DNA from: Sodiomyces alkalinus F11
Taxonomy: Eukaryota; Ascomycota; Sordariomycetes; Glomerellales; Plectosphaerellaceae
Assembly (NCBI RefSeq): GCF_003711515.1
Contig: NW_021167080.1
Location: 6,475,282 to 6,539,281, forward strand
Reading direction: 5' to 3'
DNA: 64,000 bases
This document shows, piece by piece, positions 25,620 through 50,463 of this stretch. The notes beneath the pieces are model-generated. The model saw only the letters and a list, made by a program, of their open reading frames with translations, did not search any database and had not been told where the DNA came from. Every line of letters begins with the position of its first letter. Positions within the stretch are counted from its first letter, which is position 1. The translations under genes and the position numbers were made by a program.

Positions 25620-26040
25620 AAAGTCCTCTAGACTAAGGGCCGACTAATTAATATCCCCCGAAATACTTATCGATTAAAGATCCTCTACGATAAAGCCCTC
25701 CTCGCGAAATAACTTGGCGAGGCGATAAGCGATCGTCTTTGTCTAAACCCTTTATACCCCACTAGAACGTCTTAGTACTCTTCTCCTCCACCCTTTAACG
25801 AAGCTTCTGAATACGAGTAAGGCGGTTCACCGCTATCGCGAGCTATTACTAGAGCACGAATAGCTTTTCTTCGGCCTTAGCCTCCTCCGACTTAAGGCGC
25901 TTCTCGGAAGATAGGAGATAGGTGACTAAGAAAGGACGGAGGGTTAGCGAGGGGTAGCGAAAGGGCTATGAACGAGAAGGAAACTCACGGGAAGAAGCTA
26001 CCAGGACCCTATCTTACGTCCGACTATGACGAACGCATTC
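25620..26040 (-). pseudogene. GypC antisense coiled-coil frame
   Basis: On the strand opposite to pol, between the chromodomain and the 3' LTR, a frame reads LVTYLLSSEKRLKSEEAKAE, then LAIAVNRLTRIQKLR, then FQWGIKGLDKDD (with stops at Q/W). The heptad-like leucines and charged residues suggest a coiled coil. From memory, similar leucine-rich 'RLxRLRKQK' proteins are frequent as hypothetical proteins in fungal genomes near gypsy elements, which I could not check. GypA and GypB also carry antisense frames at this position. Confidence 0.5.
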
Positions 26041-26289
26041 TCCATAATAAGAGGAATCTTCCTTAACTATATAATAAGCCGTATTATTTCGGAAATAACA
26101 AGTATAAGGTATATCTACGTTAACACCACGGAGATCGATATATACGAGAAGGGCGGCTTTTTCAGATTTCTTTCGGACGCTGCGTTTCTGCACGCGATCC
26201 GATATAATGGTTAGCTATAAGGATGGAGGAAAGAGGCCTAAGGAAGCACGGACCCGGGACGACGACCTATTTATACGACCGCTGGGATA

Positions 26290-26311
26290 GCGCTTAGGAG
26301 AGGGGAGGTAA
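26290..26311 (+). promoter_or_regulatory. GypC polypurine tract
   Basis: AGGAGAGGGGAGGTAA just before the 3' LTR (TATTACGG at 26312). Confidence 0.65.
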
Positions 26312-26605
26312 TATTACGGCTAATAAGCCTAATATGCAGGAAACCCCGATAGAAACACTAGAAATCACGTGGGAGCTTACGTAACTAAAAGACTAGGGTA
26401 GAACGATAGAGCGTAGGACTCGGAACGCTCCCGCGTTCTAGGAATAAGGGAGCGTCTAGAACTATAACTCTCTAACGCTCCTAACGATCTAAGAATATAT
26501 AGCTAGAGGAAGTTATAGATAGTATTACTATATATACTAGAGTATTCTAGGTCTTGCTTCTACTAGAGAATAATATACTATAGAGGACCGGAAGCCGTCG
26601 TAATA
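26312..26605 (+). repeat. GypC 3' LTR, internally deleted
   Basis: 294 bp. Aligns with the 5' LTR from TATTACGGC to GAGAATA and again from TACTATAGAGGACCGG to the end. The intervening 186 bp (about 19529-19714 of the 5' LTR), including the primer-complementary motif, is missing. TSD AGGGG follows. Confidence 0.9.
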
Positions 26606-26610
26606 AGGGG

Positions 26611-27060
26611 GTAGTATAGGTTAAAGTCCCTTATAAGGATATATTAGCCCTATAGCGGTGCTATATCGAATATATCTTATAGAGATATGTTTTAGGGGAT
26701 CCTAGCTAACTAGTAGTTCTCTAAGTAAATCGACTAGATTATAAGGGTATTATCTCCGGTTCCGAATATAACCGTGTAGGTATCGTGGTAGGCCCGCTAC
26801 GTCCACATGTATAGCGGGTGTCTTTCATAGATATATAAAAGGGTATAGCCTCCTCCTTAGATTAGCTAGTATACCCTTTAGGAGGGGTAGGCAGGGCTTT
26901 TTGTGAAATAGTTAAGGCCGGGTTTCTATATCGCTAGTATATTATACTTAGCGTGGTACCGGAGCGGTAGCTCCCGCCGCGCCTAACTCCTCCCTATATT
27001 CTATAAAAGGATATGGATTTCTATTAATTAGAAGGGGGGGGGGGGGGGTTAAGACGATAT
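26611..27060 (-). pseudogene. LINE ORF2 relic, endonuclease N-terminus
   Basis: Minus-strand frame upstream of the GypC insertion. A segment KYNILAI.KPGPNY near 26945-26905 corresponds to the 'ILAIQEPW' block of apurinic-type LINE endonucleases, and ARYYDTYTVIF follows near 26780. It continues at 19260 on the far side of GypC. A run of 15 G at 27034-27048 lies near the presumed ORF2 start. Confidence 0.65.
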
Positions 27061-28450
27061 GCCTAGTATAACCGGGGTCTAGCTTTAGGGTTCTTACTAC
27101 GGTGCTTTACCGGCCCCGCGGGGGACTATATAGGCGCTTATCAGGCCTAGTATCGGGGAGCCCTCCTATCCCCTAGTCCTTTTCGGGGGCTAACCCCTGC
27201 CTTTACGGAGGGGGCGGTCCTAGTCCTAGGTAATAATAATCGTGGGGAAGATCTACGGCTATTATAGGTATACCGCTTCGGTCTAGCGGGTAATATCGAA
27301 GTCCCTAGCTTAGTACTTATACGCTTCGCGGGTTTTCTTAGTCTTTTTTTGTAGTAGTCGGTATAAATTATTAAAGGTATTATAATTTCCGGTATAGGCG
27401 GCGTAGCGGCGGGGGCGCCTAAGTACTATAGCTTTATAGTATCCTAGGCCTTATAGGTACGCCGACTCGGGCTTAGCGTAGTAGCGGTATATCCTCTCCG
27501 CTATAGGGTAGCCGTTCGCCCGGTAGCCGAAGTATAGGTATTTCTAGCACCTTAGGGGGCTAAGGTTAGGATTATATAGCTTATAGATATAGCTACCCCC
27601 CTTAAAGAGGAGGGTATTCCGGATAAGGCTTATTACCCTTTCCGGTAAAGCCGATTCGATAAGGAGAAGCGCTACCCTTCTAATACCGCGGCGGGGTACC
27701 CGCTATCGTGCTTAGATAATTTTTGCCTCGGGGTTTATATTTTATAGGGAGACTAGTAGGTCTTCTTCAGATAAGGTGTTAAGGGCCTCCCGGGGGATAG
27801 CCTTAGCTAGTATAGGGTTGGTGCGTATGGCTAGGGTAGCTCCTTTACTAAAGGCCTTCTTAACCTATTATTCTTTATAGGTGGCTTACTACTATACCCT
27901 TTTAGTAAAGGTAAGGTAGATATCTCCGCTCGGTAGCTTCTATACCGTTACGATATTATATCGGGTAATCGTGGTATTTATAGCTTAGATAATTTCCTTC
28001 GAGGTCCTGGCTTTAAGGGGCTAGTCTTCGGGGAGGGTTTTTTAGCGGATAATTAGCTCCTAGTAGTGCTTAGCGGGGATTATTTTAGGGGGGGCGGGGT
28101 TTTACGGCGGTGCCGCTACGGGAGCCCGGGCTATAATATTAGCCTAGGTCTTTTTTATACCGCTTATTCCTTTTCGGAGTTCCTCTCGGATAACGTGATA
28201 GATAGTAGCGTATAGGTATACTAGCGGTATCACGCCGGTGTCTTTACGGGTACTACGTATCGTGATTAGTTCCTTTACTAGCTCTATAACCTATTCGATT
28301 ATATTCCTATTACCTAGTAAGGCCTGAATTTCTGCCTTAATCTTAGTTACTCTCGGTTCCGGGGGGCGCGGTAGTCCCTTTTTAGTCTTATATCGGTTCC
28401 GCGTTATATCCCGCCACGGGCGAGGGGGGGAATACTTATATTACGAAAAT
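27061..28450 (-). pseudogene. LINE ORF1 (Gag-like) relic
   Basis: Minus-strand frame reads VIELVKELITIRSTRKDTG near 28280-28225, VIREELRKGISGIKK, TSKEIIQAINTTITRYNI near 28000-27960, LPSGDIYLTFTKR near 27945-27910, then AERIYRYYAKPESAYL near 27510-27455. The SGD-[IL] block after an 'EI..IN' helix is characteristic of ORF1 proteins of Tad-like elements. The following Y/C-rich part may be the remnant of CCHC knuckles, but the cysteines are lost. Confidence 0.7.
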
Positions 28451-28661
28451 TAGGTCTATTATAAATTCTGCGTGGTCGAGGTCGGGACGATACTATTCTA
28501 TATTTCTTCCGGCTATACCGTAGCGCTAGTATTACGGTGTCGTTATAATAGTATCCCGGGAGGGAGGCCGTAGTTATAATCTCCGTCTCGGTGGTTTTAT
28601 CGATTTTACTCCTATTACGCGCCCGTGGTTAATAGGCGTGTCGATTATAAATGCTGTCTTG

Positions 28662-29300
28662 AATACCGCCTTATATTCTACGATCTAGTAATCCCCCGCT
28701 ATAGTATTTATAGGCTATACCCCCCGAGGACCTAATAATATTACGCTCCCTAAGGCTAATAGGTTCTACGCCGTATCGGCCGATAGATATATTAAATAGC
28801 TAGTAAGAAATAGAAGAGCCCTTATAGACCTTATTAAGAAGGCCTAGGATATATATACGAAGTACTATAATACCGATAAGCTTACCTATAGATTTAAAAA
28901 AGGCGATTATATCCTCCTCTCTACTAAGAATATTAAGTAGAAACGCCCTAGTAAAAAGCTCTTATATAAGTACCTAGAACCCTATAAAATTAAGGAAGTT
29001 ATAGGGAATTATAGCCTCGCCTATAAATTAAAGCTCCTATTAACTATAAAACTTATAATATATTTCCTATTTCCCTCCTAAAGCCATAAAATCCTTATAT
29101 AAATAGTGTCTAGGCCCCCTAAAAAGTCGAGGTAAAACTTTAAGAGTCCGATAAGTATAAAGTTAAGAATATCCTAGCCTACCGTTATAATTAAAACCGC
29201 CGCTAATACCTAATTAAGTAGGAAGGCTACAGATATAAGGAAAATACTTAGGAACCCACGCGAAATATCCCGGAATTACTCCTTCGCGAGTATCACGCTA
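28662..29300 (+). pseudogene. GypA Pol relic, second part (integrase C-terminus and chromodomain)
   Basis: Continues the integrase interrupted at 14681. The GPY/F-like region reads FKKGDYILLSTKNIK near 28898-28940, then YKIKEVIGNYSLAYKLKLL near 28980-29035. At about 29127-29290 a chromodomain follows: YKVKNILAYRYN, then YLIKWEGYRYKEN, then WEPTRNIPELLLREY (stops at W/Q). The inverted copy repeats it at about 42540-42360. Confidence 0.85.
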
Positions 29301-31299
29301 GGAGGTCCTAATATACTCCCTAAAAAGACACTCAGAGCGCCTTAGAAGTTTCATCCTAATATACTAGGTCCAGGAAACACCTTATATATCAGAACTTTAG
29401 GAATTTATATACCGAACCCGTAAACCTCCTAAATTAGGGTCTGAAAAATTAATTATTACCCCGTAGGGACTTACTATTATACTAGATAGAAACACTGGAA
29501 AAAGAAATTTTAAGGCCTAAAACCCCCCCTAATATAAATACTCGGTAACTATATATTAACTGCCCCTTAGCCACCCCTCTTACTACGGCTATTTACTAAG
29601 TAGGTACTCGTATAAACCTTTAACTATAGCTATAAAATAAAGTAACGCACTCTCTATAATCTCCTGATAAGACTAAGTATCTTAAACGGCCTATTTAGCA
29701 GCGCGGCGGATAATAGAAGCCTTATTAAAGCCTTAACGGTTTTACGCCTAATAGCCGCTTTTAGCCTTACCTAGTAAAACCTATAGCTCCTTTAATTCGG
29801 CCTATTACTAAGTTAGTAAAATACACTCTTTTAGGGGCTAAGATTCACTTATAAGCTATATATCAGTATAGTAGCTATATTTATTAGCTTTAATTAGATA
29901 ATGCTATATATGCTTACCTAGTAACTTAGCCTTAAGGGTTATCTAGAAGTCTATTAGTAATCCACGGAGTAGCTTATTAGGAAGGGGTTATAATTACTTA
30001 CCTTTATATAACCCCGAGAATTATTACCTTCGTAATATTTAGATTTATACGAATTAATAGTATACGCCTCCTTATAGGCGCTAAAGATAATATAGACGAA
30101 GGAAGTACCATGTATAACGGTTATAAGGAGCGCGGGGGTAAATACCCTTTACGTCCTCCTTAACCATGCACGTAGTATCCTCCTACGGCTTATTATCGCC
30201 TTTATAGGTATCGGCTATATCCTTGTCCTTATCGATATTATTAACCGTGTTAGGGTCCGTATCGTCCTTATCCTCCTTTTCCTCCCCGTAGTTAACTATA
30301 ATAACCTTATAACCCTCCCCCTCGGAGAACTCCTTAAAGGAATTATTATTAATTATAATAATACTATTATTATTATTCTTTTTATACTTACTATAAGCGT
30401 ACTCCCTACCTGATAATAGCTTAATAATAGGGCTATTACCCTAGTTAACCACTCTAGTAGGAGTATTATTATTATTATAAGTAATACTATCTTACTAGCC
30501 TAGTATTAGCTGTAGCGCTATATTCTCCTGATAGAGAATTTCTATATACTCTATAATAAGCGCTGGCTAGTCTTTAGTTAGGTTATTAGATATAATAATA
30601 GAGGAGGTCGGCGCGTTAATATTAGAAATGATCTAGTATTATAGATAAAGATTGCCCCTTAGTACTTATTAATCGTTAACGGGAGATATATAGAGCCACT
30701 TACCTATACCACGAGAGCTATAAATATATACTTAAATTAGGAAAGAAAAATATCAGGAGAAGGTTATATAAGAAAATAGGTAATATTATTATTATTATTA
30801 TTATAGTAAAAGGTTAACTAACCCTATAGAACTGCGTATACCTTCCTTATATTTACCACGATAATATATTATACCTACTATTAGACCCCCTATATCCTTT
30901 TATTCTTACCGCGATAAGAACCGTGGTGGTTAACGGTAACACTATAGGTAATCTCTTTATATACTTACTTTAAGGATATTTTATGTATATTACTTATTTA
31001 CACGATAGTTATTTATAAATTCCTTTTTACTTCGCTCTTTAACCTAATTATACTGCCCTTAGGACCTCTATACCTAAATAACGTCTTCGTTAGATATAGC
31101 TATATTTAAGGTTTAAAGGCGAACGCTTATTATCTTCCTCGAGTACTCTAAGTAAGAAGAAAGAACCCGGTCTAGATAAAGACGGTTATCCTAATGAGTT
31201 TCGTAATAATATAGGTTTCCTTTACTAGATACCTAATCCTCCCTTAATTATCCGTACTTACGCTCCTAAGAATAGGAGTATTTTTAGAGAGGGGTATAT
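29301..31299. other. GypA 3' region outside the antisense frame
   Basis: 29301-29589 is noncoding sequence after the chromodomain. 30641-31299 runs to the LTR and includes an (ATT)n run at about 30785-30804. A purine tract AGAGAGGGGTA ends at about 31296 before the LTR. Confidence 0.5.
29590..30640 (-). pseudogene. GypA antisense frame
   Basis: Opposite to pol and lying between the chromodomain and the 3' LTR. It reads LIIEYIEILYQENIALQLIL, LLSGREYAYSKYKK, an asparagine run, FKEFSEGEGYKVIIVN, DTDPNTVNNIDKDKDIADTY, APYNRYTWYFLRL, and a C-terminal part with QQAELKELQVLLGKAKSGYQ. All breaks are TAG/TAA. The inverted GypA copy carries the same frame at 41010-42085 with matching residues, so it is not chance. 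No known domain was recognised. The acidic, N/D-rich middle and possible terminal coiled coil are the visible properties. Confidence 0.65.
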
Positions 31300-31692
31300 T
31301 ATCAGAATATGTAGTGCTTATACGTTACTATAGAACTAGTACTAGACTTATATATAGATAGGGGGATCGTAGTTAGGTTAGACCGTTAAAGATACGACGC
31401 GTTAGGGTCTAATAAGCTAATTAACTTAAAAGCTAGCTTAGATCTAGTAAGCTAGTTAGCTTAGGAACCAGCTTATACCTAAACTTAGTCCTAAGGAGGC
31501 CTCTCGCCACCCACTTAGTTAGAAGACCTTAGGTAGGTATAAAGAGGGGAGTGCCTTCTATAGCTCCTAGAGTCTTTAAGGGACTTAACGAATAATCTTA
31601 TTATAATCCCCCCTCTTTAGTTCCTACTAGTCCCTAAGTGACCTTATATCGTTCTGCAATAGCCTATTACTCCTCATAGTACACCTATAACA
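31300..31692 (+). repeat. GypA 3' LTR
   Basis: 393 bp, starts TATCAGAATAT and ends CTATAACA. TSD CACGG follows at 31693-31697. Partner of 9494-9886. Confidence 0.93.
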
Positions 31693-34600
31693 CACGGCTA
31701 CTATATCTTCTACTATTATGCTAAAGGGCGATAAGGCGACGGATGCCACGGACGCCGTCGCTACGGCTATTATAGCTAATACTATAGCGGCCACGGCCGC
31801 CGGTAAAAGGAAAACGGCCGCTCGCCGGAAGGCTATGGCCGTAACGAAAAAACCTCCGATAAGGACGCCTACGTCTATTAACGACCTCTCTAAAAAAAGG
31901 CGTACGCGCTACCTATAAGATTACCGCGTATACCGCGAGGAAAAGGCAGACTACGACACGTAGTAGAAAGAGTTTAATAAGATACGCTCCTATATCGAAA
32001 AGACCGTCTATACTATATTATATAACCTCCTTATATAGCTATAGAATAATACCATAAATAACCCATAGGCCTACATTACTCTCCTATACGCGTATATAGG
32101 AGTAATACTTATAGACCTTGATAAGGAAGCCTTAGTTCTATATCGACGATACACTACGCCTAAAAAGGCTATAACTAAGAATATAGACGGCTAGGTTATA
32201 AGCTAGAAAATAGCGATAATATACTATAAATGTATAGGCGTTTTAGAGCTATTAAGGGTGGACCATTAGGTAGAAGACGCGTTAAAAGCTATTAGACTTA
32301 TCGCCTGGGAATAAAGTAATAACTACCTAGTAAATAACGACGATAAGATTACGGAAAATAAACTAATAATTAACGACTTTGTAAAGGCTTTATAGGTGGT
32401 TCTTAGTAATATAAAAAGCCTATAATCCACCGCTATAAAGCCTAGAGTTAAGAGAGGCACCTTTAATACCCTTAAGAACCTCCCTAATACTAAGGATACT
32501 ACTACTAATAATAGTAAAGATAATACAAAGCGTCATCGTAGCGATATATCCTTAAAGGCTACTCCTCCCATAATAAGAAGGCCCTATGAAATATACAAAA
32601 ACACCTATACTACTACCGCCTATTAGTATATAAGGCCGGCTATACGCCCTTATATCTATCGTGGCCGTGAAGATATTATAAAGGTCGCGGAAAAGAAGAT
32701 ACGTAATTATAGTTTTAAAAGCTGCGTAGATACCGCGATATAGAAAAGGCGGGAAGTAGTGGCTATCACCGCTAATAAGATAAAGGAAGTCTGGGAAGAT
32801 TAACTCTATAATACTACGCTTACTACTATAATAGTTTATAAAGACCTTTCCGTCACCGCGAGTATACGGCTAGGCGTCTACCCCTCCTAAGAAGGGGGGG
32901 TAGCGTATCCTCGTATAATAATACTATTAAGATTATAATAAGAATAAGGGGTATCCCTTTCTAATAACTAAGCCAGAGCGCTATTATACTATATAATCCT
33001 AGACTTGGGATTATTAATCCACGTCTTTAATAATTAAGGCCGTTCTACGGCCGTTAGACCGCCTATTAATAACCTTCTACTACGCTAGGGAGGTATATAT
33101 AAGGCTTTTATCCTCGGATACGGAGACGTTAAGCTATAAGTATAATCCCTATTAGGTACGAAGAGGCTATTACGCCTTTATAATATTATATACTACCAGG
33201 AATTCGTTACTAATATAGTCTCGGAACGCTAGCAACGCCTATAAGGCTACCATTAGGATACTATAAATAATACTATTATCCGCTGTACTAATAACTAGCC
33301 TATTTATAAACTACTATATATCCACGGCTAGTATATAATCAAGCGCGCGGAAGCTATAGCTATTACCGCGTTCGCGGTTTTACCTTACTACCCTCACGAT
33401 AACCCCTATAGAATATCACGATAACCGCAGTAACCGTAGAAGACTATAGTATAACGGTAGCCCGAACGCCTCGGCCACTACAGTACTAACGCTCTCGCGA
33501 AGGTCGTCGACGCTATTTAGGGGGTAAGGATTAAAGGGCCGCGAACCGTAGAGTATAATGCGCACGGGTAATCGTAAATACCTACGCAGATCCGGCAGAT
33601 ACTATCCCTTTACCCGTTAAAGCCCGGAGAGGCCCTAGCGGTTACTTTTCACGATCTACAAAAAGGCGGAGTCGTTAGCGGGTAGTCTATATAAGTCTAT
33701 TATATTCGTTATAGACGTGTATATAGGTTATATATAGGATTACTATTTATAGAAAAAAGATTAAGGCTTTATCCTATACGCGCTAAAAGACGTTTTTACC
33801 CTGCTTAAGACGTAATTCGATATTAGGCCACGCGTTTTATAGGCCGATTCTAAGATATTTTAGTATCCAGAAGTTATTACTTTCCTCGTTACTAAAAGGG
33901 TAAAAGGTTAGCCGTCGGCACTATATTTATAGAATTAAAACGACGTTACAGAACGGATTAAAGGTATCGTTAAGAGAAGAGCCAGGGCTATAAGGATTAG
34001 AGCTAATCTGCCTTTATCTATCTAGCCTAAGATCCTTAAGACTACTATATATCTATATAATAGGACGCTATAATATATTAACGACTAAAAGACGCTATAC
34101 GAAGGCCTACGCGGCCGTTAACCTAACCTTACACACCTACGAGTATATAGCTATAAAGCCTTTATAGAAACGCGTAATATCTAAGCTAAATGGAACCGCC
34201 TATAAAGGCTAGAACCAAAGGTATAGATCGGTTATCACGTTAAATACTAATCCTCGAATAGCTTCCGCGTTTAACTACTATACCTAACGGATATAATTAC
34301 TATAAAAGATATAGTCTTTAACGAAGATAAGATATTTAATAGCAGGATTAAAACACTATAAGCTATAGCTTCCGCTAAGGAAATCGGGGAACGCCTATAA
34401 TCTATCCGTATTACCTAATCTAATAAGACCGCGAATAGGCTATTATTAAGGGGTATAGCCGTAGACGTATTAGATCTTAAGTTGGAAGACTCTAACACCA
34501 CCGCTATTACTATAGGTAAAGATAACACTACCGCTATTACTATAAACGAAGGAAAGGCTATCGCTATTATAATAAAAAAGGCTATTACTATTATTCTAGA

Positions 34601-36780
34601 CTATACCGCTATTATTACGGGAGAGGCTACCGCTATTACTCTAGACACCGATACGGTTACGCATACTCCGCGGTTTACCGCTATAAGGTTCGAACCGTTT
34701 CCCACGCCTTTAATATCCCCGGAAGGTCCTACGCGCGTGTTCCTTATAGCGTTAGCGGTAGTTAGGGGCGTTAAGGTAGAAGGAGATAATAACCACTCAT
34801 AGGTAGCCGCGGATTCCTAAGGGGTGCTTATTGGCTATACGCCTATTAGCCGCGCGCCTATCTATTATAAGAACTATTATAAGTATCTATAAAACTAAGA
34901 AGGTGTAGAATAATAACGCCTAAAAAGCGTTCTTTAACGCTAGAAGGACTTATAACCCTATACGCGCGAGGAAGTAAGCTATTAATAACGGCAATATTGG
35001 TGCTATAGATTCCCCTTATACCTCCTAGCCGCTATCGTATATAACCCGCGAGTATCTCCCGCCTTTACTAAACCACTACCACGATATAAGCCTTTACCTA
35101 TTACGGGAGCGGTAGTTAAGGCTAAGGGGGAATACCTTAAGGGGTATTAATAGATAGGCTATTAGTAGGTGGTAGGCGATGATGAGGCTAATAAGTAATA
35201 AGTCCTCGCCTATAGATTGGTATACACCTATAAATTTAATATGGAGGGCACCCTCCTTAAATATAAGGCACGCCTTATAGTATAAGGGGATTAATAAAAA
35301 CGGTTAAAGACTAAAAGTAACTACGCCGCTATATTAGCCTCGCGGTCCTTCTATATACTAATAGCGATCGCCGTACGATTTAATCTAGAACTAAGGTAGT
35401 TTAATACCGTTAACGCGTTCGTTAACTCTAGCCTTAAAGAAAAGGTGTTGATAAAGATACCGTAGGGCTATAAGGTACTAGGTAAGGTCCTATTACTACG
35501 AAAAGCCCTCTTCGGATTAAGCGTATCGCCACTACTATAATAAGAGGAATTTAGCGGTACGCTATAGAAGATAGGATTCACGGCTATCCCTAATAACCCC
35601 AATATTATAATCCGCGACGGTTTAATCCTATTCTTCTACGTCGACGATATCGGACTTATATATTATAAAGACTATAAGACTAACGCCGACGACCTTAACG
35701 CCGCCCTTAAGTAAAGCTATAGGTTATTAGGAGGCGAAGAAATCTATTAGTTCCTAGGAATTAAGGTCCTAAGGGATATAGCCACCTGTAGGTTATAGCT
35801 ATTATAATCCTCTTACTTCGAGAAGATCGTGGTTAAATACTACGTAGATATCCTCTGCCAAAAACCACTAAAAGTCCTATTATCTATAGAGCCGGTAATA
35901 CTACGCGACGGCACGCGCGCGTCGATTCCCGAGGTCTATTAGTATTAGGGTATAATCGGTCTATCCTATATACCGCTATTATAATAAGACCCGATATCGC
36001 GTTCGCCTATTTAAAGCTTTCCTAATATAATATTAACCCCTCTTCTAACCACCTTAAAAAGGCTTAATAAGTACTATTATTCTTATACTATATAAGATAC
36101 TATTACCTGGAATTTAGCGGGGATAGACTCTTCTTAACCGTAAATAACACGTCCTTCGGGGATCATCTAGACCATAAGAGTTTATAAGGATATACGATAA
36201 AGCTTTTCGGCGGCACCGTTAACTAGAAGGCGGGTAAGTAACCGATAGTCACGACGTCGTTAATAGAGTCGGAACTACTCGCTCTTACTAAGGCCGCTGA
36301 GGAGATATTATTTATTAGCCGGATATTAAGGGATTTAAAGCTTCGGTTAGACTAATAGTAGCTATAGCTATACTACGATAATTAGTAGACTATTAATAAG
36401 GTTAATAAGAAGGCATAACGTCTACGGATAAGACTACGGCATATCGATATACATAACTAGTAAGCGCGCTAGTTAGTATAATAAGGTCTTTTTAAGCTTA
36501 TATTCGTTAATATAAAGTAGATAATCGCGGACGGTTTAATAAAGGCATTACCAGAGGCAGGAATTAAAAGACTATAGTAATAGCTGAATTTAACGGATTA
36601 GAAGAATCGTATCGAGTAATCTAAATAGCTATATAAAAAGATCGAACGCGCTAAAACCGTAGCGACTATAAAGGCCCCCGAGGGCATAGCAGATCCGATA
36701 GACGTGGATCCGATTAAGTAGATCCAGTTAATCAGGATCGAGGAACTAATTAAAATAGAATTAAATTAAACGGTTAAACA
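31693..36780 (+). pseudogene. CopA copy A Gag-Pol relic, second part
   Basis: Resumes the CopA gag after GypA. A stop-free stretch 31718-31918 holds an A/T-rich basic region (TAAGKRKTAARRKAMAV). Protease remnant IILDLGLLIHVFNN lies near 32995-33036. Integrase covers about 33200-34250. A repetitive linker follows at 34482-34660 (AITI-type repeats). RT: KARLIVQGD near 35266-35292, NAFVNSSLKE near 35408-35440, the active site FYVDDIGLIY at about 35634-35662 (both D retained), and FLGIKVL near 35752. RNase H: ASFGDHLDHKSL-type block near 36150-36185, SLIESELLALTKAA near 36258-36300, and LRHIDIHN near 36436-36460. The order PR-IN-RT-RH is that of Ty1/copia. Stops from RIP occur in all domains. Confidence 0.9.
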
Positions 36781-36907
36781 GGGCGGATTTAAGTCCCTTT
36801 TACGAGGGCGTTTTCACCTAAGTATTAACTTTATAATACAAAAGGTTAAGAGCGTTTAGTTTAAACCGAAGCCTTTAATTAGTTACTTAACCTAGGAAAA
36901 CCCACCT

Positions 36908-39745: not shown

Positions 39746-40895
<1,150 letters not shown>

Positions 40896-41009
40896 ACTTT
40901 TTCTTTCCTAATATAAGTATATATTTATAGCCCTTTTTATACTAGTAAGTATCTCTCCACGTCTATTATTCGAGATTAATAAGTAATAAGGGGTAGTCTT
41001 CCTTTATAA

Positions 41010-42085
41010 TATTAAAAAATTTATAATATTAACATGCTAACGCCCTTTATCACTATATCTAGTAATCTAACTATAAACTAGTTAGCGCTTATTATACAGT
41101 ATATAGAAAATCTCTATTAGGAGAATATAGCCATACGGCTAGTATTAGGCTAATAAGATAGTATTAGTAATAATAATCATAATACTCCTGCTAAAGTAGT
41201 TAACTAGGGTAATAGCCCTATTATTAAGCTATCGTCGGGTAACGAGTACGCTCCTAGTAAGTATAAAAAGAATAATAATAATAATATTATTATAATTAAT
41301 AATAACTCCTTTAAGGGTTTCTCTAAGGAGGAGGGTAGTAATATCGTTATAGTTAATAATAGAGACGAAAAAGAGAATAAGGATAACACGGACCCGGATA
41401 CGGTTAATAATATCGATAAGGATAAGAATATAGCGGATACCTATAAAGGCAATAGTAAGCCGTAGAAGGATACTACATGCACAGTTAAGGAGGACGTGGA
41501 GGGCACCCACCCCCGCGCTCCATATAACCGTTATACATAGCACTTCCTCCGTCTTAAGCTAAACGGTAGTCACGACTATATTATCTTTAGCGCCTATAAG
41601 GAGGCGTATACTATTAATTCGTATAAATATAAGTATTACTAAGGTAATAGTTCTCGGGGTTATATAAAGATAAGTGATTATAACCCCTTCCTAATAAGCC
41701 ACTCCGTGGATCACTAATAGACTTCTAGATAACCCTTAAGGCTATGCTACTAGGTAAGCATATATAGTATTATCTAATTAAGGCCAATAAACACGACTAC
41801 TACATCGATACGTAGCTTATAAGTAAACCTTGCCCCCTAAGAGAGTATATCTTACTAACTTAGTAATAGGCCGAATTAAAGGAGCTATAGATTTTACTAG
41901 GAAGGCGAAGAGCGGCTATTAGGCCTAAAACCGTCAGGGCTTTAATAAGGCTCCTATAGTCCGCCGCGCCGCCGAAGAGGCGGTTTAAGATACCTAGTCT
42001 TACTAGGAGATTATAAAGAGTGCGTTACTACGTTTCGTAGCCATAAGTAAATGCTTATATAAGCACCTACTTAGTAAGTAGCCGT
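41010..42085 (+). pseudogene. GypA copy 2 antisense frame
   Basis: Plus strand, opposite to pol. It reads LSSGNEYAPSKYKK, an asparagine run, FKGFSKEEGSNIVIVN, DTDPDTVNNIDKDKNIADTY, APYNRYT, then KAMLLGKHIQYYLIKANKH and QQAELKELQILL. It matches residue for residue the antisense frame of GypA at 30640-29590, with TAG at Q positions. The minus frames at 41204-41543 are its shadows. Function unknown. Confidence 0.65.
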
Positions 42086-42359
42086 AGTAAAAAGGGGGGG
42101 CTAAGGGGCGGTTAATATATAGTTACCGAGGATTTATATCGGGGTCTTAGGAGTTTTGCTTTTTAGTTTTTATATCTAGTATAATAGTAAGTCTCTACGG
42201 GGTAATAATTAATTTTCCAGACTCTAATTTAGGAGGTCTACGGGTTCGGTATATGAATTCCTAAAATTGTAATATATAATATATTTCCTAGACCTAGTAA
42301 ATCAGGATTAAACTTATAAGGCGCTCTAAGTATTTATCTAGGGAATGTATCAGGACCTC

Positions 42360-45300
42360 CTAGTATAATACTCGTAAAGGAGTAATTCCAGGATATTTCG
42401 CGTAGGTTCCTAAGTATTGTCCTTATATCTATAGCCTTTCTACTTAATTAGGTATTAGCGGCGGTTTCTATTATAGCGGTAGGCTAGGATATCCTTAGCT
42501 TAGTACTTATCGGACTCCTAAGGTTCTATCTTAACTTTCTAAGGGACTTAGACGCCGTCTATACAAGGACTCTGTAACTCTAGGAGGGAAATAGGAAAGA
42601 TATTATGAATTTTTATAGCTAACAGAAGCTTTAATTTATAGGCGAGGCCGTGATTCCCTATAACTTCCTTAATTTTATAAGGTCCTAGATACTTATCTAA
42701 GGGCTTCTTACTAAGCCGCTTTTACTTAATATTCTTAGTAGAGAGGAGGATATAATTACCTTTTTTAAACTTATAAGTACGCTTATCGGTATTATAGTAT
42801 TTCGTATATATCTCCTAGGCCTTCTTAATAAGGTCTATAAGGGCTCTCCTATTCGCTACTAAGTATTTAATATATTTATCGGCTAATACGACGTAAAACT
42901 TATTAGCCTTAGAGAGTATAATATTATTAGGTCCTCGGGGGGTATAACCTATAAGTGCTATAGCGGGGGACTACTAAATCGTAGAATACTACGCGGTATT
43001 ATGCGTAAACTAAGCTAATAAGAGCTAATCTACCTAGTTATCCTACTAATAGGTATAATAGGTCCTTAGGTAATACTCTAGGTTCTAATATTAGCGCTTA
43101 GTTTAACTATTAGTTTACGGATAAAACGCTATCGATAGTCGCCTCTTAAGTCCTAAATATCTATATAGGGTAAACTAAAATTTACCCGTAAATAAAAAAC
43201 TATAGTTAGAAATAATACTATCTAGTAGGCTAAAGATAGAGAAGACACTTAATTATATAAGGTTCGCTAGGCCTTCTATATTTAAACTAGAGCTATACGG
43301 AATATACAGGGTAAATTTCGTGTACCGGTATATAATGATAAGAATAGCGTCCTTTTTCCTACCTCCGTATATTACGGGCGGTAGGCCGGAAATAAAGTCG
43401 ACTAAAATTTCCTAGAACGGACGGCCCGGTATAAAAAGACTCTAGAGGCACCCGTAGGGTTTATAATATCTAGGCTTAGTCCTCTAATAAATACGGTAAA
43501 TAAGGATAAAAGCTTGAACGTCTTATTTTATATATTCCTAAAAGAAAGTGTCTATAATACGCCGAAGGGTCCTCGTAATTCTATAGTATCTAGTTATAGG
43601 GTAATCGTGGAAAGCCTATAGAATCTATTCCCGGAGACCGGAGTATTTCGGAATAAAAAGCCTATCACGGAAAAAGACTAGACTTTATTTATTATAGGAC
43701 CACGGGTTAGTCGGGTTACCTTCCCGTAATAACTTATAAAAGGGGTCCTCTTATTAGGTTTCTATAATATTATAAGACTAGGTAATAACGTTACTATATT
43801 TTTGTAAGGGGTAGGGGTAGTATTAAGGGCAGCGTAAATGGGTCCGACCGTAAACTTTTACGTGAATACTTTAACCGGCTTCTATCACTCTATACGAAAG
43901 TTAAGACTTCCTGCTACGTGCTAAGGCTTCCGCGAGAGGCTATCTATAGGGTTATTAATACCCGGTTAGTATCGTATAGTAAAGTGGTAAACTACTAATT
44001 CGTCGAGCTATTAAGTATACTAGGCCTTTACCTTAGGTTTTTCGAGAAGGTAACGGTGGTTTAAATAGTCTATTAGTACCTCTATAGGGGTTTAGGCGTA
44101 AGTGATATAATATCTTTATAATCGAAAAGCTTCTATAATAGCTATAAGCTTTATATCCGGGGTAAAGTAGTTTAACTTAGGACGTTATAGCTTCCTATAA
44201 AAGAATACTATAGGTCTCTACTATCGGTCTACGTTAAGTTAACTAATAACTACGCCTAGGACGAAACTTAATATATCCGGCTTAATCCGGATTAATAATA
44301 TTAGGTTAAAATATTAAAGAATAGGTGCCTCCTAAAATTTCTAGCATAATAGCCGAAAAGCCTCCCGCTCCTTAAAGGTTAATATAAAGACCCCTACTCT
44401 TCCTCCGTCTTTTAATAGGTTAGTTAGTAGTGCTATAACCTTAGAGTAAGCCTTAATAAACCGCCGGTAAAAACCCGTAAATCCTAAGAAAACCTGGATC
44501 TTCTTAATCGTGTCTAGCTCTTTCTAATCCCGGATAACTTCTACCCGTTTAGGGTCTATAAAAACACTATAAGAACTATAGATAAACCCAAGGAACTCTA
44601 CCTCTTAAACCTTAAAGATATATTTCTTCGGATTAGTATATATAGACTATTCCCGTAACCGTTATAGGATACTCCGTATATATCGCTAATATAACACTAC
44701 GTCTAAGCTATAAATCAGGATATTATTTAGGTAAATAACATAAATAGTATCTATAAGTCCTCGTAAAGACTTATTAATATAATATTAAAAGAAGGCAGGA
44801 GCGTTATAAAGACTAAAAGGTATTATTAGATACTTATAGTAACCGTACTTAGTCCGGAATACGGTCTTCTATTTATCACCTTCTCAGATCCGTAACCGGT
44901 AGTAAGTATCCTTAAGGTTTAACTTTATATAGATTATCGAATAGGATAGGCGGTCTAAAATCTTATAAGTTAGCGGGAGTAGCGTATAGTCCTTCTTAGT
45001 TACTTTATTAAGTCCTTAGTAGTCTATATATAGTCTTAACCTTCTATTCTTCTTCAGGATAAAAAGGATAGAGGCGCCTATTTAACTAGATAAAGGCCGG
45101 ATTTGTTATTTCGCTAAAGTATCTGTAATATACTCCCTTAAGACTACGAGTTCCTCCTTAGCTAAGGCGTAAATAGGACTAAAGGGGGGCGATTTACCTT
45201 TAGTAAGTTCAATCGCGTAGTCTTACTTATAGTACGGTAAAAGGCGACCGGCTTCGACTATATTAAAAATATTAGTAAAATCTTAGTATAGTTTAGGGAG

Positions 45301-47290
45301 GGTATCCTTATTAGGGGGGTTAGGGGGGTTTTAGATATCCTCTTAGTAATCTTAAAGAGGGTTTTAGGTAGCGGTTATAATCTAGCCTAAGCGCGTAGGA
45401 TAAACGGCTATAGTAATCTATACTATTAAAGGAATTATAGCGGTAACGCGGCTAATAGCTTTCCGTAACTAATAAGTTATAGTAATAAAGGCTAATTCGG
45501 ACTTCTAAAGGCGGAAAGTCTATATCTTATCTATCTACCGGATACTAGGACTATAGGACTAGAGTTATAAGAAACTAAGGATAATCTAGGCGCTATTAGG
45601 ATCTAAATCTATAATATAAAATATAATAGTTTTGGCTCGGGTCCTGCCCTAACTATATATAATCTAATAGATTAATTTAATAACCCCGTAAGTCTTTACT
45701 TACTAACCTAGTACTAATTATAAGACGTTCTTAGTAGGTCCTAAGGGTTTATAACCGGGTAGGAGGCTAGCACAGTTAATAACGTCTAGGTCCGAACCTA
45801 AGTCTATATAAGCACGGTAGGAGGTTTATTTGCTATCTGATTATATACCGCCTTATCGTAAACTAAGTTATACCTCTAAGGGACTATAAGAGAGAGGTAG
45901 CGATATAGATAGCGCGTATTCCTACTATAAGAGTTCCTTAGAAAGTATAACCTATACTTAACCTACTATAGTATTTCTCTTAGGATGTATTACTACGGAA
46001 TTAGCACTAGGCGTCATATTCTGGGTATTATTATAAGGCCTATTAGCGTTCTGATTCGTCTTCCTAGGGTCCTTTAGGTATAATAAGCGATACTAGCCCT
46101 TTTCGTGATAGTAAAAAAACTCGATTTCCTTAATAGAGGGGGGTAGGCTAATATAGGGGTTCTTTTAGGGTTTATCCGATATATCCTTATTTTATCCCTT
46201 AATACCCTTAGTATTATTCTGGTTATAACTATATAAAGGGCTTAACTATCTTTTCTGCTTATTATTACGCTTAGCCTGCTAATAGGCCGGTAGGGCAGAG
46301 TAAGGCTAGTTATGATCCTCGGCGTCCTGGATTAAGGCGACCTAAGCCTAACGGGCGGCTATATAAAGCTCTTTAACTAATTTCGGTAAACTTCTAGCAC
46401 GGATACGGTCTTTAAAAGCCTTTCGTAACTTATTAAGAATTACCTATATACGAATTTTATCGTTAAGAATAATAGGGACTTCCGTAACAAGTCTATTTAT
46501 AAAGTCTAGGAATCTATTATAGGACTAGTCTAGTTTCTGCCGTATACGGTCAGAGAATCGTTATTCCGTGATAGATATCTCCCGGGTATTATAGTTAATA
46601 AGTAGACTAGTAAGGAACTTCTTTATATCTTCCTAAATAGCCCCTCCTTCACGATTTATATATCCGAAGATAGTCCTCTAATACTAATACTATAATAACT
46701 TAGTAGTTCATAGGAGATTATTAGAGGCGTAGAAGATTTTAGGTAGTTCGGTGCGAAAATAGTTAGGGTTTATCGCGATCCGGGCCTTAATATCCTCGAT
46801 AAAAATAAAATATCTATTATAAGATACTCTATCCTACTTAGGGACGTCCACGTTAATTTTAATTACCTTATTACCCTACGCTAGTATACCTAAAGAGGAC
46901 CGGGAGGGCTCCTAGGAGGTTATAAGGGTAACGGTATCAGGGTCGATCCCGCTACGTAGAAGTTCGTGTCAGCGTTCTTCTTCCTTTTAAGGCATAGTTC
47001 AAGATCATAGGTCTTTACTATAAGTTCGGTATCTTAGAGGTCTATTATAGGGAGACTCTAAAGGTCTAAGTAAGTATATCGCGTTATACGGTTATCCCCT
47101 TATTCTTTAGGATTAGGAGTATTAGGGGCAGGGGTACTATTAAAGAGAGGAGGGGGCGAAAAGGAAGGGGATCCTTCCTTATTATTATTTATAGGTCCTA
47201 TAGGAGGGGGGATTAACGGATTAACGCGTTAAGGTATAATAGTCTCTTAGGGTTCTACTAATAACTATTCTTTAGTATTACGTGGGTCGA
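42360..47290 (-). pseudogene. GypA copy 2 Gag-Pol relic
   Basis: Minus-strand frame in the same order as GypA. Gag includes a knuckle remnant (FFYYHEKGQYRLLY) near 46130-46090. Then come a protease region with DLGSDLDVINCASLLPGYKP, RT with LYIDY and KLNLKDTYYRLRI near 44960-44900, an active site turned into YLNNILIYS near 44750-44705, VEFLGFIYSSY, and RNase H with LGVVISQLNVDR. The integrase core is uninterrupted at 43800-42900 and the chromodomain follows (KDILAYRYN, YLIK.KGYRYKDN) near 42510-42380. Both catalytic D residues of RT are affected by RIP. It is useful as the reference for the sites broken in copy 1. Confidence 0.88.
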
Positions 47291-47336
47291 ATTAGTCGTG
47301 TATAATTCCTATTAGTTATTATACCCGTGTAAAAGG

Positions 47337-47351
47337 GAAGAATAAATAAAA
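47337..47351 (-). promoter_or_regulatory. GypA copy 2 putative primer site
   Basis: Minus strand TTTTATTTATTCTTCC next to the 5' LTR, a mutated form of the GypA motif TTTTATTCG. The LTR keeps the complementary AACGAATAA (plus-strand TTATTCGTT at 47449-47457). Confidence 0.45.
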
Positions 47352-47745
47352 TATTATAGGTATACTATAAGGAGTAATAGGCCACTATAGAACGATATAA
47401 GATCCCTTAGGGACTAGTAGGAACTGAAGAGGGGGTATCGGGATAAGATTATTCGTTAAGTCTCCTCTAAGACTCTAGGAACTATAGAAGGCACTCCCCT
47501 CTTTATACCTACCTAAGGTCTTCTAACTAAGTAGGTAACAAGAGGCCTCCTTAGGACTAAGTTTAGGTATAAGCTAGTTCCTAAGCTAATAAGCTTACTA
47601 AATCTAAGCTAGCTTCTAAGCTAACTAGCTTACTAGACCTCGACGCGTCGTATGTTGAACGGTCCGACCTGACTACGATGCCCCTATCTATATACAAGTC
47701 TAGTGCCAGTCCTATAGCAACGTATAAGCACTATATATTCTAACA
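47352..47745 (-). repeat. GypA copy 2 5' LTR
   Basis: 394 bp, reverse complement of 9494-9886. Plus strand starts TATTATAGG and ends TATTCTAACA. Confidence 0.92.
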
Positions 47746-48050
47746 CTATCTTAATCTAAAGCTAAGCCACGAAAAGGCTAATGCCTACCTCCTCCCTATA
47801 CCTACGCCGTCTAAGATTCGTAAGTACGAAACCCTTATCGTGGACCTAAACACAGAGGAGGCTATAGCTATGGCTACCACGTTTTCTACTATTATGCTAA
47901 AGGGCTATAAGGCTACCGATACTACGGACGCCGCTATTATTATAGCGGCTATGGCGGCCACGGCCGCTACTACTACGGCCGCCGGTAAGAAGAAGATAGC
48001 CGCTCGCCGGAAGGCTACGGCCGTAATAAAAGAACTGACGATAAGGACGC
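47746..48050 (+). pseudogene. CopA copy B Gag, N-terminal part
   Basis: Reads YLNLKLSHEKANAYLL, RKYETLIVDLNTEEAIAMAT and an alanine/threonine- and lysine-rich block (AAGKKKIAARRKATAV) that is stop-free from 47840. It is cut by GypB at 48050 with GACGC duplicated. Homologous to 9366-9493 plus 31693-31868 of copy A. Confidence 0.82.
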
Positions 48051-48402
48051 TGTTAAATGGGTAGTCGCAAAGAGTGAAAAGGTATGGTCAAGTAAGAAAC
48101 TAGGTGTGATTATGATAGGATCACGATAAGGGAAGTGTAGGGGTAGCTAAAGAATTAGATTAATCGCTGGCCTCCCTCTTTAAAGGGGAGGCTCCTCCGC
48201 TTCTTAAGACTACGTTCCGTTACTCCTCGAGGACTACTTATTTACTTCCTTAAGGGCTACCTTATTTACTTCGAGGGACTATTCTGTTTACTCTATGATA
48301 CCTACTTTATTTATGCCTCGAGGGGTCTTAGACTAGGCATGCCTAGACCCCTATAGGTTTATACTAGGGACCTATTATAACCACTACTGCAGGCACCTAA
48401 TA
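48051..48402 (-). repeat. GypB 3' LTR
   Basis: 352 bp. Plus strand TGTTAAATGG ... ACCTAATA. Minus-strand purine tract CCGGGGGAGG borders it at about 48409-48420. Confidence 0.93.
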
Positions 48403-48424
48403 TAGCGACCTCCCCCGGATACTC
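48403..48424 (-). promoter_or_regulatory. GypB polypurine tract
   Basis: Minus strand ATCCGGGGGAGGTCGCTA directly before the 3' LTR. Confidence 0.6.
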
Positions 48425-49139
48425 CTGTCCTTAGGAGCGCCTGATCCGTGCCGGCCCCTCGGCTCCTCCGAAAACCTAGCCTCCGAGTCCGTTCTTAAAT
48501 CCTAAACCCCTCGATACTCCGAACCAGAGCCCTCTATAACGGGGCCCTAATAGGTTCCCGCCTAATACCTACACGGAGCCCTTTTAGCTATAGCTTTAAT
48601 TTAGGTAGGCCCTTTCTCCCTTTATCTATTAACTAAGGCTACTTCCTTTTATACTTCCGAATCCGGCGCTGCGTACGGCCAAGCCCTATTAATTCTCCTA
48701 TAGTCGTATTCCTACCAGGAACCTAAGGGGTTCCGGGGTAGGTCCTTCCCGGGCTATCGAATCTGCCCCTTTATCCTTACGGATTATCTCTTTGATCTAT
48801 CTATAAAGAGTCCCTCTCATGGTGTTATATAGGCCCGATATTACTCCTTCTGTGAATTTCGTGGCTTTCTTCTTTATACTAAAAAAAGGTGTCTATATAA
48901 CTATTATAGGGGGATATCTTATAATCCTGCCGTTTTCCCCTGTTCCTATTCTTTTCTTCCTCCTTTATACCTAATTTTTTAATCGTGCTACCTTTTTCGG
49001 TAAGTTCTGCCTAATTCAGGATATCGTATACTAACGACTTATAGTCTTAATTAATTAAATAACCCAGTACTATTTTATAACTGCTTCCTAGCCTATCTCT
49101 AGCCTATAGTATAGGCTAACCACGCGATATAATATAGTC
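48425..49139. other. GypB 3' noncoding region
   Basis: RIP-mutated sequence between the 3' LTR and the antisense frames. No coding frame was recognised. Confidence 0.45.
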
Positions 49140-49592
49140 GCTATACCCTCCTAGGAAGATAATAATAATAATAAGCACGTCGCTACTCCCGCGAGTATAT
49201 CGCGGTCCTTTAAAAGGATCAAGATCGTGGTTACGGCGTCGACCTTATAGTCCGCTAGGTAGTCTGCCTCGTAGCTAGCTACGCCGTAGCCGGCTACGCT
49301 AAAGCCTCTTACTTCTACTATAGCTACGTCGTTATTAATTACTACGCTATCGGTCGCTCTCCGCTAGAAGGTAGTGGATATCGGTATAGGCGGGGATCTA
49401 AAGGCCCCCTATATACGTTATACGGGTAAGTTAGTGACGATTAACTTTAAGGAAAAGACATATACTATTAAGGCCGAGACGTACCATTACGGCGATAACG
49501 GCCGGCGTATAAATAAATACCACTACTCCTCTAAGCATAACAGCCTTAAATACCGCGTAGTAAGTTATATATCTCTAACACTATCCTTATAG
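49140..49592 (+). pseudogene. GypB antisense frame 1
   Basis: Plus strand, opposite to pol. A frame with few breaks reads SISRSFKRIKIVVTAST, then a stop-free 72-codon run from 49374: KAPYIRYTGKLVTINFKEKT, AETYHYGDNGRRINKYHYSS. A GTAAGT at 49560 and a CTAAC...TTATAG ending at 49592 resemble splice signals, but 33 nt is very short for an intron. No family recognised. It may be the first part of the frame at 49640-50463, which is in a different register. Confidence 0.45.
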
Positions 49593-49639
49593 CCCCTCTC
49601 TTTTTAGACTACTCCGTAGGCCCCGTTTCTAATATATAT

Positions 49640-50463
49640 AATAGCTCCCTATTACCGGTAAGAACGCTACCGAGTAGCTATAAAAGGTTTTAGTTATTAC
49701 TATTAAGAAAGGTAGCCTAAATAAGAGTCGTCGTGTAAGTATTACTAACTATATCCTCTTATTAACCATATATAATACCCTTACTAAGCCTTTATAGTAC
49801 TAGGCCATAGCAGTTCGATACTAGGTTATCCTTACAAAGGCTCTAGGTTAAGTAACGCTAAAGGTTAACCGGTCGTCTATTAAGGAAGCTATTACTACTC
49901 GGCCTTAAGCTAAGGAAGTTACCGATACCCGCTAGAAAATAGCGGAAGATATCCACGAGAGGCTCGATAGTATAAAGTCGCTCCTTAAGCAATTCGTCGG
50001 GTTATAGTAGCAGCGCCTTACTATTAAGCAGCAGCGGCTCGATATTAAGCAGTAACACCTAGTATTATATCAGCACGACCTCACGGCCCAGGAATATACG
50101 GCCACTATCTTCGAGTAAATAGCTACTCTTAACCTAGCCTAGGCTTAGGCCGTGGAAGGTAATATACCTACACCCTTAGGGTCTACCTTAGCCCCTACGG
50201 GAGTTAGCTTTACAGGTAACGATATATTTAGTAATAGTAGCCCTACGCAACCTTAAGACTTCGTGCCGTAAAGTCCCTATGGTCCCCCGGATTCTTATAA
50301 AATACCCGACGATAACGATATAGTGCCGACCTCGTTAGTAAAGAAGGGTAAAGGGAAGAAGGCTTTAACGCCCTCGACACCTTTATCAGGGAAAAAGAAG
50401 AAAAAATAAGCAGAAGGCGAAAACGCCGCTATCTTTTTTTCCTTCGACGCTATCTGCGGGTAA
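49640..50463 (+). pseudogene. GypB antisense frame 2, coiled-coil protein relic
   Basis: Plus strand, opposite to pol. It reads KVLVITIKKGSLNKSRRVSI, VTLKVNRSSIKEA, KIAEDIHERLDSIKSLLKQF, QRLTIKQQRLDIKQQHLVLY, HDLTAQEYTATIFEQIATLN, then a proline/serine region (TPLGSTLAPTGVSFTGND), YKIPDDNDIVPTSLVKKGKG and a lysine-rich end. The stop is TAA at 50461-50463. All internal breaks are TAG/TAA. The Q/L/I heptad-like stretch suggests a coi. Confidence 0.5.

What the first reader, a model, noticed from the sequence alone, without database searches (positions are those of the whole stretch)
25620..50463. An antisense frame between chromodomain and 3' LTR in all three chromovirus families
GypA (30640-29590, minus), GypB (49140-50463, plus) and GypC (26040-25620, minus) each carry a degraded frame on the strand opposite pol in the same place. 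Breaks are only TAG/TAA. The sequences differ, but two contain Q/L/K-rich probable coiled coils. Antisense 3' frames are known from some plant gypsy elements (for example Grande). I do not know a description for fungal chromoviruses as a shared trait. They could encode a regulator or produce antisense RNA that restrains the element.
Basis: partly seen in the sequence, partly recalled or inferred. Interest (0 to 1): 0.8.

Follow-up and report, generated by a model that had tools for sequence, protein, structure and literature searches.

The report
Spliced antisense gene in fungal retrotransposons
Three decayed mobile elements in a fungal genome each carry the ruins of an extra gene on the opposite strand, with its own intron and, in the best-preserved family, a cysteine cluster plus coiled coil like those of some regulators; such antisense genes were known from one related element (Boty), but the intron and the regulator-like make-up may be new.

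Summary
The antisense frames are real and lie between chromodomain and 3' LTR in GypA, GypB and GypC. The elements are RIP-saturated, so breaks are nearly always TAG/TAA in every frame and that clue means nothing. Sense splicing cannot see such an intron, so it survives retrotransposition; it points to an antisense mRNA. The GypC-type protein has two intact environmental homologues (E 1e-38), a C-x2-C-x6-C-x8-C-x2-C-x6-C cluster, a predicted long coiled coil, and selection in its frame (omega 0.46, lowest of six frames in 82 of 90 pairs). It is opposite-stranded near integrase in 28 of 29 cases, the exception a mispairing. GypA and GypB rest mainly on splice sites and conserved frames; GypB gave no homologue and GypA was not searched. 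Fungal precedent: Boty's antisense gene brtn (seen only as a citation). New variant of a known kind, most likely an antisense-encoded regulator; function not shown.

The parts
25989..26205 (-). GypC antisense gene, exon 1 (six-cysteine cluster; many Cys codons read Tyr through RIP)
   Evidence: coordinates; Cys/Tyr columns; less mutated copies L079 and L091; intact homologues
25926..25988 (-). GypC antisense intron, 63 bases: GTGAGT donor, CTAAC branch, TTAG acceptor
   Evidence: the same place in 24 of 33 related copies tried, the other 9 (window copy among them) not matching the script's anchors
25620..25925 (-). GypC antisense gene, exon 2 (coiled coil; true end not fixed; window copy has a frameshift near 25735, by eye)
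   Evidence: fold of homologue P0017
25336..25463 (+). GypC chromodomain, end of pol
19268..19531 (+). GypC 5' LTR
   Evidence: 93% to 3' LTR
26314..26577 (+). GypC 3' LTR, about 110 bases upstream of the antisense gene start
30002..30632 (-). GypA antisense gene, exon 1 (acidic stretch, then Cys/Tyr-rich end)
   Evidence: start not fixed
29943..30001 (-). GypA antisense intron, 59 bases
   Evidence: GT in 21 of 22 copies, GTRAGT in 19 of 22; coordinates
29586..29942 (-). GypA antisense gene, exon 2
29147..29248 (+). GypA chromodomain
   Evidence: E 0.009, supported by DNA similarity to GypB through 29274
31300..31690 (+). GypA 3' LTR
   Evidence: 89% to 9494-9884
41046..42084 (+). antisense gene in the second GypA copy (40877-47749, reversed), broken
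   Evidence: (G000:C2:6516327-6517365), converted to window coordinates
49143..49559 (+). GypB antisense gene, exon 1 (start by eye)
   Evidence: Cys/Tyr columns
49560..49797 (+). GypB antisense intron, 238 bases, length varies between copies and not by threes
   Evidence: GT in 17 of 21 copies, GTAAGT in 16 of 21; lengths
49798..50421 (+). GypB antisense gene, exon 2 (Q/L/K-rich coiled-coil-like; end approximate)
51321..51422 (-). GypB chromodomain
   Evidence: E 0.059, supported by DNA similarity to GypA
48053..48398 (-). GypB 3' LTR
   Evidence: 88% to 56773-57118

Best explanation
Each element carried, between pol and its 3' LTR, a real two-exon gene read on the opposite strand. It was probably transcribed from a promoter in or next to the 3' LTR and spliced, and it made an accessory protein: a cysteine (probably zinc) cluster in exon 1 and a coiled coil in exon 2. 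I think the protein is a dimeric nucleic-acid-binding regulator that acts on the element's own LTR or RNA, working like the antisense-encoded HBZ protein of HTLV-1. Shown here: place, strand, frame, intron signals, relatives, and for GypC selection and intact homologues. Inferred: transcription, zinc binding, dimer formation, target and effect.
For: Position and strand; in the genome, 28 of the 29 integrase (PF00665) hits with a P0017-like hit within 4 kb have it on the opposite strand, 812-914 bases downstream (98 of the 142 matches were entered, one per place; 27 of 56 integrase hits had none nearby); the one same-strand case is a mispairing, since L079's own pol end lies on the other strand. 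DNA alignments that span chromodomain and antisense region in one orientation: 17 of 20 GypB, 19 of 20 GypA and 20 of 20 GypC loci. Intron: GypA GTRAGT in 19 of 22 copies and GypB GTAAGT in 16 of 21, with TACTAA-like branch sites in most; GypC-type: 24 of 24 anchored copies (of 33 tried) have a donor and an acceptor that join exons in frame, while intron length mod 3 varies. Coding: GypC omega 0.46, lowest of six frames in 82 of 90 pairs, pol control 0.39, lowest in 120 of 190. Stops sit where other copies have Gln or Trp: GypC 13 of 14 stop columns. Intact homologues P0017 and P0018. Coiled coil: helix 80-196, pLDDT 88-95 for residues 91-180. The LTR diverges with the antisense gene between subfamilies (0.54 and 0.54, null about 0.45) while pol stays at 0.88.
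Against: No RNA data. No Pfam zinc-cluster match even at E 10. GypA and GypB have weaker selection signals (omega 0.51 and 0.50; lowest of six frames in 5 of 7 GypA pairs, 29 of 51 GypB pairs, and 12 of 46 for the GypB C-terminal part), and non-coding LTR controls reached 0.43-0.50 in some frames. With seven disjoint GypC pairs the signal is the same way but small (omega 0.56, 22 synonymous changes). Stop columns with Gln or Trp in another copy are only 25 of 43 in GypB (intron columns included) and 5 of 10 and 6 of 14 in the two GypA parts. A GypB homologue search and the first GypC search found none (each scored only about 8000 candidates). Homology among the three families is not shown except weakly for GypA-GypB exon 1 (E 0.0028, 0 of 40 shuffles as high). 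In GypA only 1 of 20 rows shows Cys at the proposed last CxxC. Four of 21 GypB copies lack GT at the donor, three reading GC. AlphaFold mean pLDDT is 70 and the Cys part only about 60. Divergence of gene and LTR together may be plain physical linkage, and subfamilies were defined by the antisense stretch itself.
Confidence: 0.55

Rival explanations
1. The protein is real but is a structural helper (RNA packaging, nucleocapsid-like zinc protein, or import of the integration complex), not a transcription regulator.
For: A Cys cluster next to a coiled coil fits RNA binding as well as DNA binding; the review PMC7264820 (passages) discusses nuclear entry of the integration complex. No known DNA-binding family is matched.
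Against: The divergence together with the LTR while pol stays constant fits a target in the LTR better, though linkage explains it too.
Confidence: 0.2
2. The antisense RNA, not the protein, is the product: it pairs with the genomic RNA and feeds RNA silencing.
For: Antisense RNA could form double strands with genomic RNA; proposed for plant elements in PMC7264820 (passages).
Against: Amino-acid-level selection in GypC, intact protein homologues, six ordered Cys columns and frame-restoring introns are not needed for an RNA effect. Both roles may coexist.
Confidence: 0.1
3. Artefact: RIP removes TGA and shifts composition so that long degraded frames appear by chance.
For: Extreme RIP; RIP makes low-TGA frames everywhere.
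Against: Relatives at 90 places in the genome, most at 33-60% amino-acid identity (places counted), near un-mutated stretches L079 and L091, intact homologues, conserved splice sites.
Confidence: 0.05
4. A captured host gene: a fungal zinc-cluster gene inserted in reverse once and kept by the elements.
For: An antisense intron suggests that the gene did not come in as a spliced cDNA (inference); the Cys spacing equals that recalled for fungal Zn2Cys6 factors.
Against: No full-length match without stops was listed for P0017, P0006, P0002 or P0003 in this genome; eight partial stop-free matches at seven places were not examined one by one. No Pfam match. It explains origin, not function, so it can hold with the best explanation.
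Confidence: 0.1

Closest known systems
brtn of Boty-like elements, Botrytis cinerea (Zhao et al. 2011, Virology 417:248)
   Same: Fungal LTR retrotransposon with gag, RT, IN and CHROMO domains and an extra gene antisense to pol between pol and 3' LTR (passages in citing papers)
   Different: Paper not held; its sequence could not be compared. Whether brtn has the Cys cluster, coiled coil or antisense intron is unknown to me
Plant antisense extra genes (aORF-3R): Grande gene23, RIRE2, Retand TRP28, PvRetro13
   Same: Same place and strand; unknown function; some nuclear or DNA-binding-like (passages)
   Different: Different hosts and proteins; no TRP28 (PF04195) match in the Pfam scans here
HBZ of HTLV-1 (named in PMC11963269, passages; details recalled)
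   Same: Antisense gene at the 3' end with a dimerising regulator (dimer and splicing recalled)
   Different: HBZ is a bZIP protein of a retrovirus (recalled); no sequence comparison made; function here not shown
Zn2Cys6 (Gal4-type) zinc cluster factors (spacing recalled)
   Same: GypC-type spacing C-x2-C-x6-C-x8-C-x2-C-x6-C followed by linker and coiled coil
   Different: No PF00172 match up to E 10; fewer basic residues around the cluster in P0017 and P0018 than I recall for the family

Membership tests
Chromovirus (Ty3/gypsy with chromodomain integrase) | Integrase and chromodomain on pol strand, LTR pair | tested here: met
   GypA and GypB chromodomain matches weak (E 0.009, 0.059)
Antisense extra gene between pol and 3' LTR (aORF-3R, as brtn) | Position and opposite strand | tested here: met
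Antisense extra gene between pol and 3' LTR (aORF-3R, as brtn) | Kept in copies with protein-level conservation (GypC) | tested here: met
Antisense extra gene between pol and 3' LTR (aORF-3R, as brtn) | Kept in copies with protein-level conservation (GypA, GypB) | tested here: inconclusive
   conserved in copies but the selection test does not stand out from LTR controls
Antisense extra gene between pol and 3' LTR (aORF-3R, as brtn) | Transcription of the antisense gene | not testable with these tools
   no RNA data
brtn family proper | Sequence homology to BRTN | not testable with these tools
   paper and sequence not held
Zn2Cys6 zinc cluster (PF00172) | Cys spacing | tested here: met
   GypC only: columns 38, 41, 48, 57, 60, 67; P0017, P0018. 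GypB and GypA differ
Zn2Cys6 zinc cluster (PF00172) | Profile match | tested here: not met
   no PF00172 up to E 10; the tool's filters drop many weak matches
HBZ-like regulator | Antisense, spliced, dimerising, acts on LTR transcription | tested here: inconclusive
   antisense place and intron signals shown; long helix predicted; action untested

The most novel reading that the evidence does not exclude
Fungal chromoviruses share an ancient antisense gene, spliced through an intron that only the antisense RNA can remove, encoding a Gal4-like (cysteine cluster plus coiled coil) dimer that reads the element's own LTR. Gene and LTR travel and diverge as one cassette over a shared pol, giving each subfamily its own self-recognition and copy control: a transposon counterpart of HBZ.
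Probability: 0.25. Interest if true: 0.82.

Novelty: new variant of a known kind. Interest (0 to 1): 0.6.

Why it matters
Antisense extra genes in LTR retrotransposons are known but unexplained. An intron in the antisense direction is sequence evidence, in dead elements, that the antisense strand was once a working mRNA, and it gives a simple marker for finding such genes in other genomes. A gene that diverges with its LTR while pol stays fixed points to a testable job (own-LTR recognition) for a class of genes with no known function.

Tried and rejected
Frame test by fixed stops over copies: RIP is so saturated that even pol is poorly resolved except in GypC; not used as evidence. Absence of TGA: rejected as evidence. 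Sense-strand env-like frame: open runs up to 142 codons exist in GypA, which by eye mirror the acidic antisense stretch; I found no support for them but made no homology search with them. First homologue search with heavily mutated GypC rows found nothing; a second with less mutated rows found two; GypB found none; GypA was not searched in that collection. Viral and prokaryote contig scans found nothing. Cross-family homology by profile: only GypA-GypB exon 1 suggestive, the five other comparisons had 5-14 of 40 shuffles as high. Pfam matches found are all below curated cut-offs and judged chance. Solved-structure search: best E 0.19, nothing. LTR/antisense comparison first done with a lax scoring whose shuffled null was 0.69, discarded and redone with null about 0.45. 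No fold search was run on the model. In one search the GypC set was 15 loci (90 of 105 pairs inside the identity window), the GypB set 11 loci, all carrying one frame over the whole length by choice (51 of 55 pairs), and the GypA set one divergent copy (L048) against 7 others; pairs are not independent. One search also gave a GypA pol control (omega 0.56, lowest in 74 of 153 pairs). In one search, 33 loci (window included) were tried and 9 did not match the anchoring pattern and were left out (window, L049, L050, L051, L060, L064, L066, L089, L091); 20 of the 24 copies kept offered two or three acceptor candidates. In one search, 12 of 22 GypA and 25 of 31 GypB copies matched both anchors. In one search one of 21 loci (L064) was left out.

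Papers: PMC8365987, PMC7264820, PMC4227169, PMC5987419 and PMC11963269 were seen as passages only; Zhao et al. 2011 only as a citation. Searches behind the statement that I found no other fungal description: (searches returned no papers; the rest were seen as listings, apart from the five papers above).
Full report
What was checked. The window lies in an unnamed 43.4 Mb, 22-contig genome. CA and TG dinucleotides are strongly depleted across the elements, the mark of repeat-induced point mutation (RIP). The 68 stretches (some overlap, one is the window itself) are mutated too, with (CA+TG)/(AC+GT) of 0.16-0.43. Of the loci fetched later, L079 and L091 are nearly un-mutated (1.01 and 0.83) and a few are intermediate (L080 0.53, L084 0.60, L090 0.49). 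Under this mutation pattern TGA turns into TAA and Gln and Trp codons into stops (recalled mechanism), so 'only TAG/TAA' nearly holds in all six frames and says nothing about coding.

Anatomy. GypA and GypB pol resemble each other at about 62% DNA identity up to the chromodomain and show no listed DNA similarity after it. The antisense stretch recurs in at least 40 GypB copies by DNA (the search scored only 40 of 131 candidates), and a protein search with GypB gave 100 matches. GypA gave 29 matches, some of them pieces of one copy. GypC-type protein gave 152 matches, many of them pieces, down to 29% identity; the 90 that I listed one per place are 90 separate places.

The intron. In GypC-type copies the cysteine part and the coiled-coil part often sit in different frames. 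Between them lies a GT...YAG stretch of 53-63 bases, mostly with a CTRAY branch-like site. In 24 of 24 copies that the script could anchor (of 33 tried), an acceptor exists that brings the two parts into one frame, although the intron length is not constant modulo 3 (among the 14 loci not chosen by frame: 5, 6 and 3 copies with remainder 0, 1 and 2). In 20 of the 24, two or three acceptor candidates were offered and at least one fitted, so the count alone overstates the case; the fitting one is usually the first YAG after the branch site. GypA has GTRAGT at its donor in 19 of 22 copies and an ACTAAY branch in most; the intron is 59 bases and the exons lie in frames that differ accordingly in the 12 copies anchored on both sides. 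GypB has GTAAGT in 16 of 21 copies, with a TACTAA-like branch in most, 238 bases in the window, and lengths varying by all remainders. GTRAGT occurs 2 and 3 times on the antisense strand and never on the sense strand of the GypA and GypB regions. An intron on the antisense strand is not spliced from the genomic RNA and so is not lost in retrotransposition (reasoning from known biology). Its preservation implies an antisense transcript under selection (inference).

The protein. In GypC-type rows six columns alternate Cys and Tyr with spacing C-x2-C-x6-C-x8-C-x2-C-x6-C. The nearly un-mutated stretches show Cys at six of six (L091) and four of six (L079) of these, and two intact environmental proteins, P0017 (232 aa, 42% identical to the query) and P0018 (241 aa, 37%), show all six. 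The spacing equals the Zn2Cys6 pattern (recalled), but no Pfam zinc-cluster match was found. Residues 80-196 of P0017 are predicted as one long helix (pLDDT 88-95 over residues 91-180); the cysteine part is only about 60, and the model as a whole 70 with pTM 0.27. About 18 residues between the two parts of P0017 look like an unspliced intron read through by gene prediction (inference). In GypB four columns keep Cys in some copies (109, 121, 124, 132) behind two all-Tyr columns (85, 88); GypA shows Tyr at similar places with almost no surviving Cys. Exon 1 of GypA and GypB resemble each other weakly (E 0.0028; 0 of 40 shuffles as high); the five other comparisons among the three families are not above shuffles.

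Selection. Using transversions only, which RIP does not cause, the GypC antisense frame has omega 0.46 against 0.69-1.26 in the five other frames, lowest in 82 of 90 pairs; seven disjoint pairs give 0.56 against 0.95-1.26. Pol controls give 0.39 (GypC, lowest in 120 of 190 pairs) and 0.56 (GypA, 74 of 153) in their own frames. GypB (0.50) and GypA (0.51) point the same way, but LTR controls show that single short regions can give such values by chance, so for these two the intron and protein conservation carry the case. Pairs share ancestry, so counts are not independent.

Stops. In the GypC-type profile 13 of 14 stop columns show Gln or Trp in another copy, as expected of RIP in a once-open frame; GypB has 25 of 43 (intron columns included), the two GypA parts 5 of 10 and 6 of 14. 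In the rest no copy seen shows Gln or Trp; they may be saturated RIP or true stops.

Strand. Of 56 integrase hits in the genome, 29 have a P0017-like hit within 4 kb and 28 of those are on the opposite strand, 812-914 bases downstream (98 of 142 P0017 matches entered, one per place). With P0006 the count was 21 of 22. The exception in both pairs L079 with a foreign integrase hit; the DNA beyond L079 is a GypC-type pol end on the opposite strand, 82-89% identical to other copies. For GypB only 22 of 100 matches were entered; one had an integrase hit nearby, on the same strand at 1617 bases. There too the DNA beyond the antisense gene is the GypB pol end in the window's arrangement, so the integrase hit belongs to another element. 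Alignments running through chromodomain and antisense region in one orientation cover 17 of 20 GypB, 19 of 20 GypA and 20 of 20 GypC loci.

A moving cassette. Among 20 GypC-type copies (21 tried), pol ends are 0.88 identical between subfamilies and 0.90 within, but the antisense stretch drops from 0.82 to 0.54 and the LTR from 0.75 to 0.54, near the shuffled level of about 0.45; antisense and LTR similarity correlate at 0.72, pol and LTR at 0.43. Subfamilies were defined by the antisense stretch, so its own drop is built in; the LTR drop is not. So the 3' end (antisense gene plus LTR) diverges or is exchanged as a unit over a common pol. This fits a regulator with its target, but physical linkage with recombination explains it as well.

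What is known. [quoted passage not shown] the brtn paper is seen only as a citation. A Monilinia transcript resembles BRTN (PMC5987419, passage). So the kind is known, in fungi too. What I did not find in my searches (listed under Tried and rejected) is the antisense intron, the cysteine cluster with coiled coil, or the joint divergence with the LTR; brtn may or may not share them.

Verdict. A real antisense gene in GypC (very likely), and in GypA and GypB (likely); function as an LTR-directed regulator is the leading guess at about 0.4 and untested.

Noticed in passing
L079 (G000:C1:3975871-3976639) and L091 (G000:C2:6235250-6235900): Nearly un-mutated antisense stretches, although the pol end beside L079 (L090) is mutated (index 0.49). 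In 17 of 21 GypC rows the antisense region is less RIP-mutated than pol, 1 equal, 3 more: divergence may shield it from RIP.
   Followed up: partly
window 31864-37206 and 57123-62559: A 5.4 kb direct repeat at 80% identity next to GypA and GypB, another repeat family, not identified.
   Followed up: no
window 8797-9003, 36946-37152, 62297-62503, 63661-63867: A 207-base repeat in four copies (67-90% to the first), possibly the end of another element.
   Followed up: no
window 14685-28662: GypA is split by a nested insertion holding GypC and further unidentified DNA.
   Followed up: no
window 52647-53220: Imperfect internal repeats inside GypB pol.
   Followed up: no
G000:C1:601226-601474 and C1:603091-604356: An integrase hit with a GypB antisense-type hit on the same strand 1617 bases away; the GypB copy's own pol end lies on its other side in the usual arrangement, so two elements abut.
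   Followed up: yes
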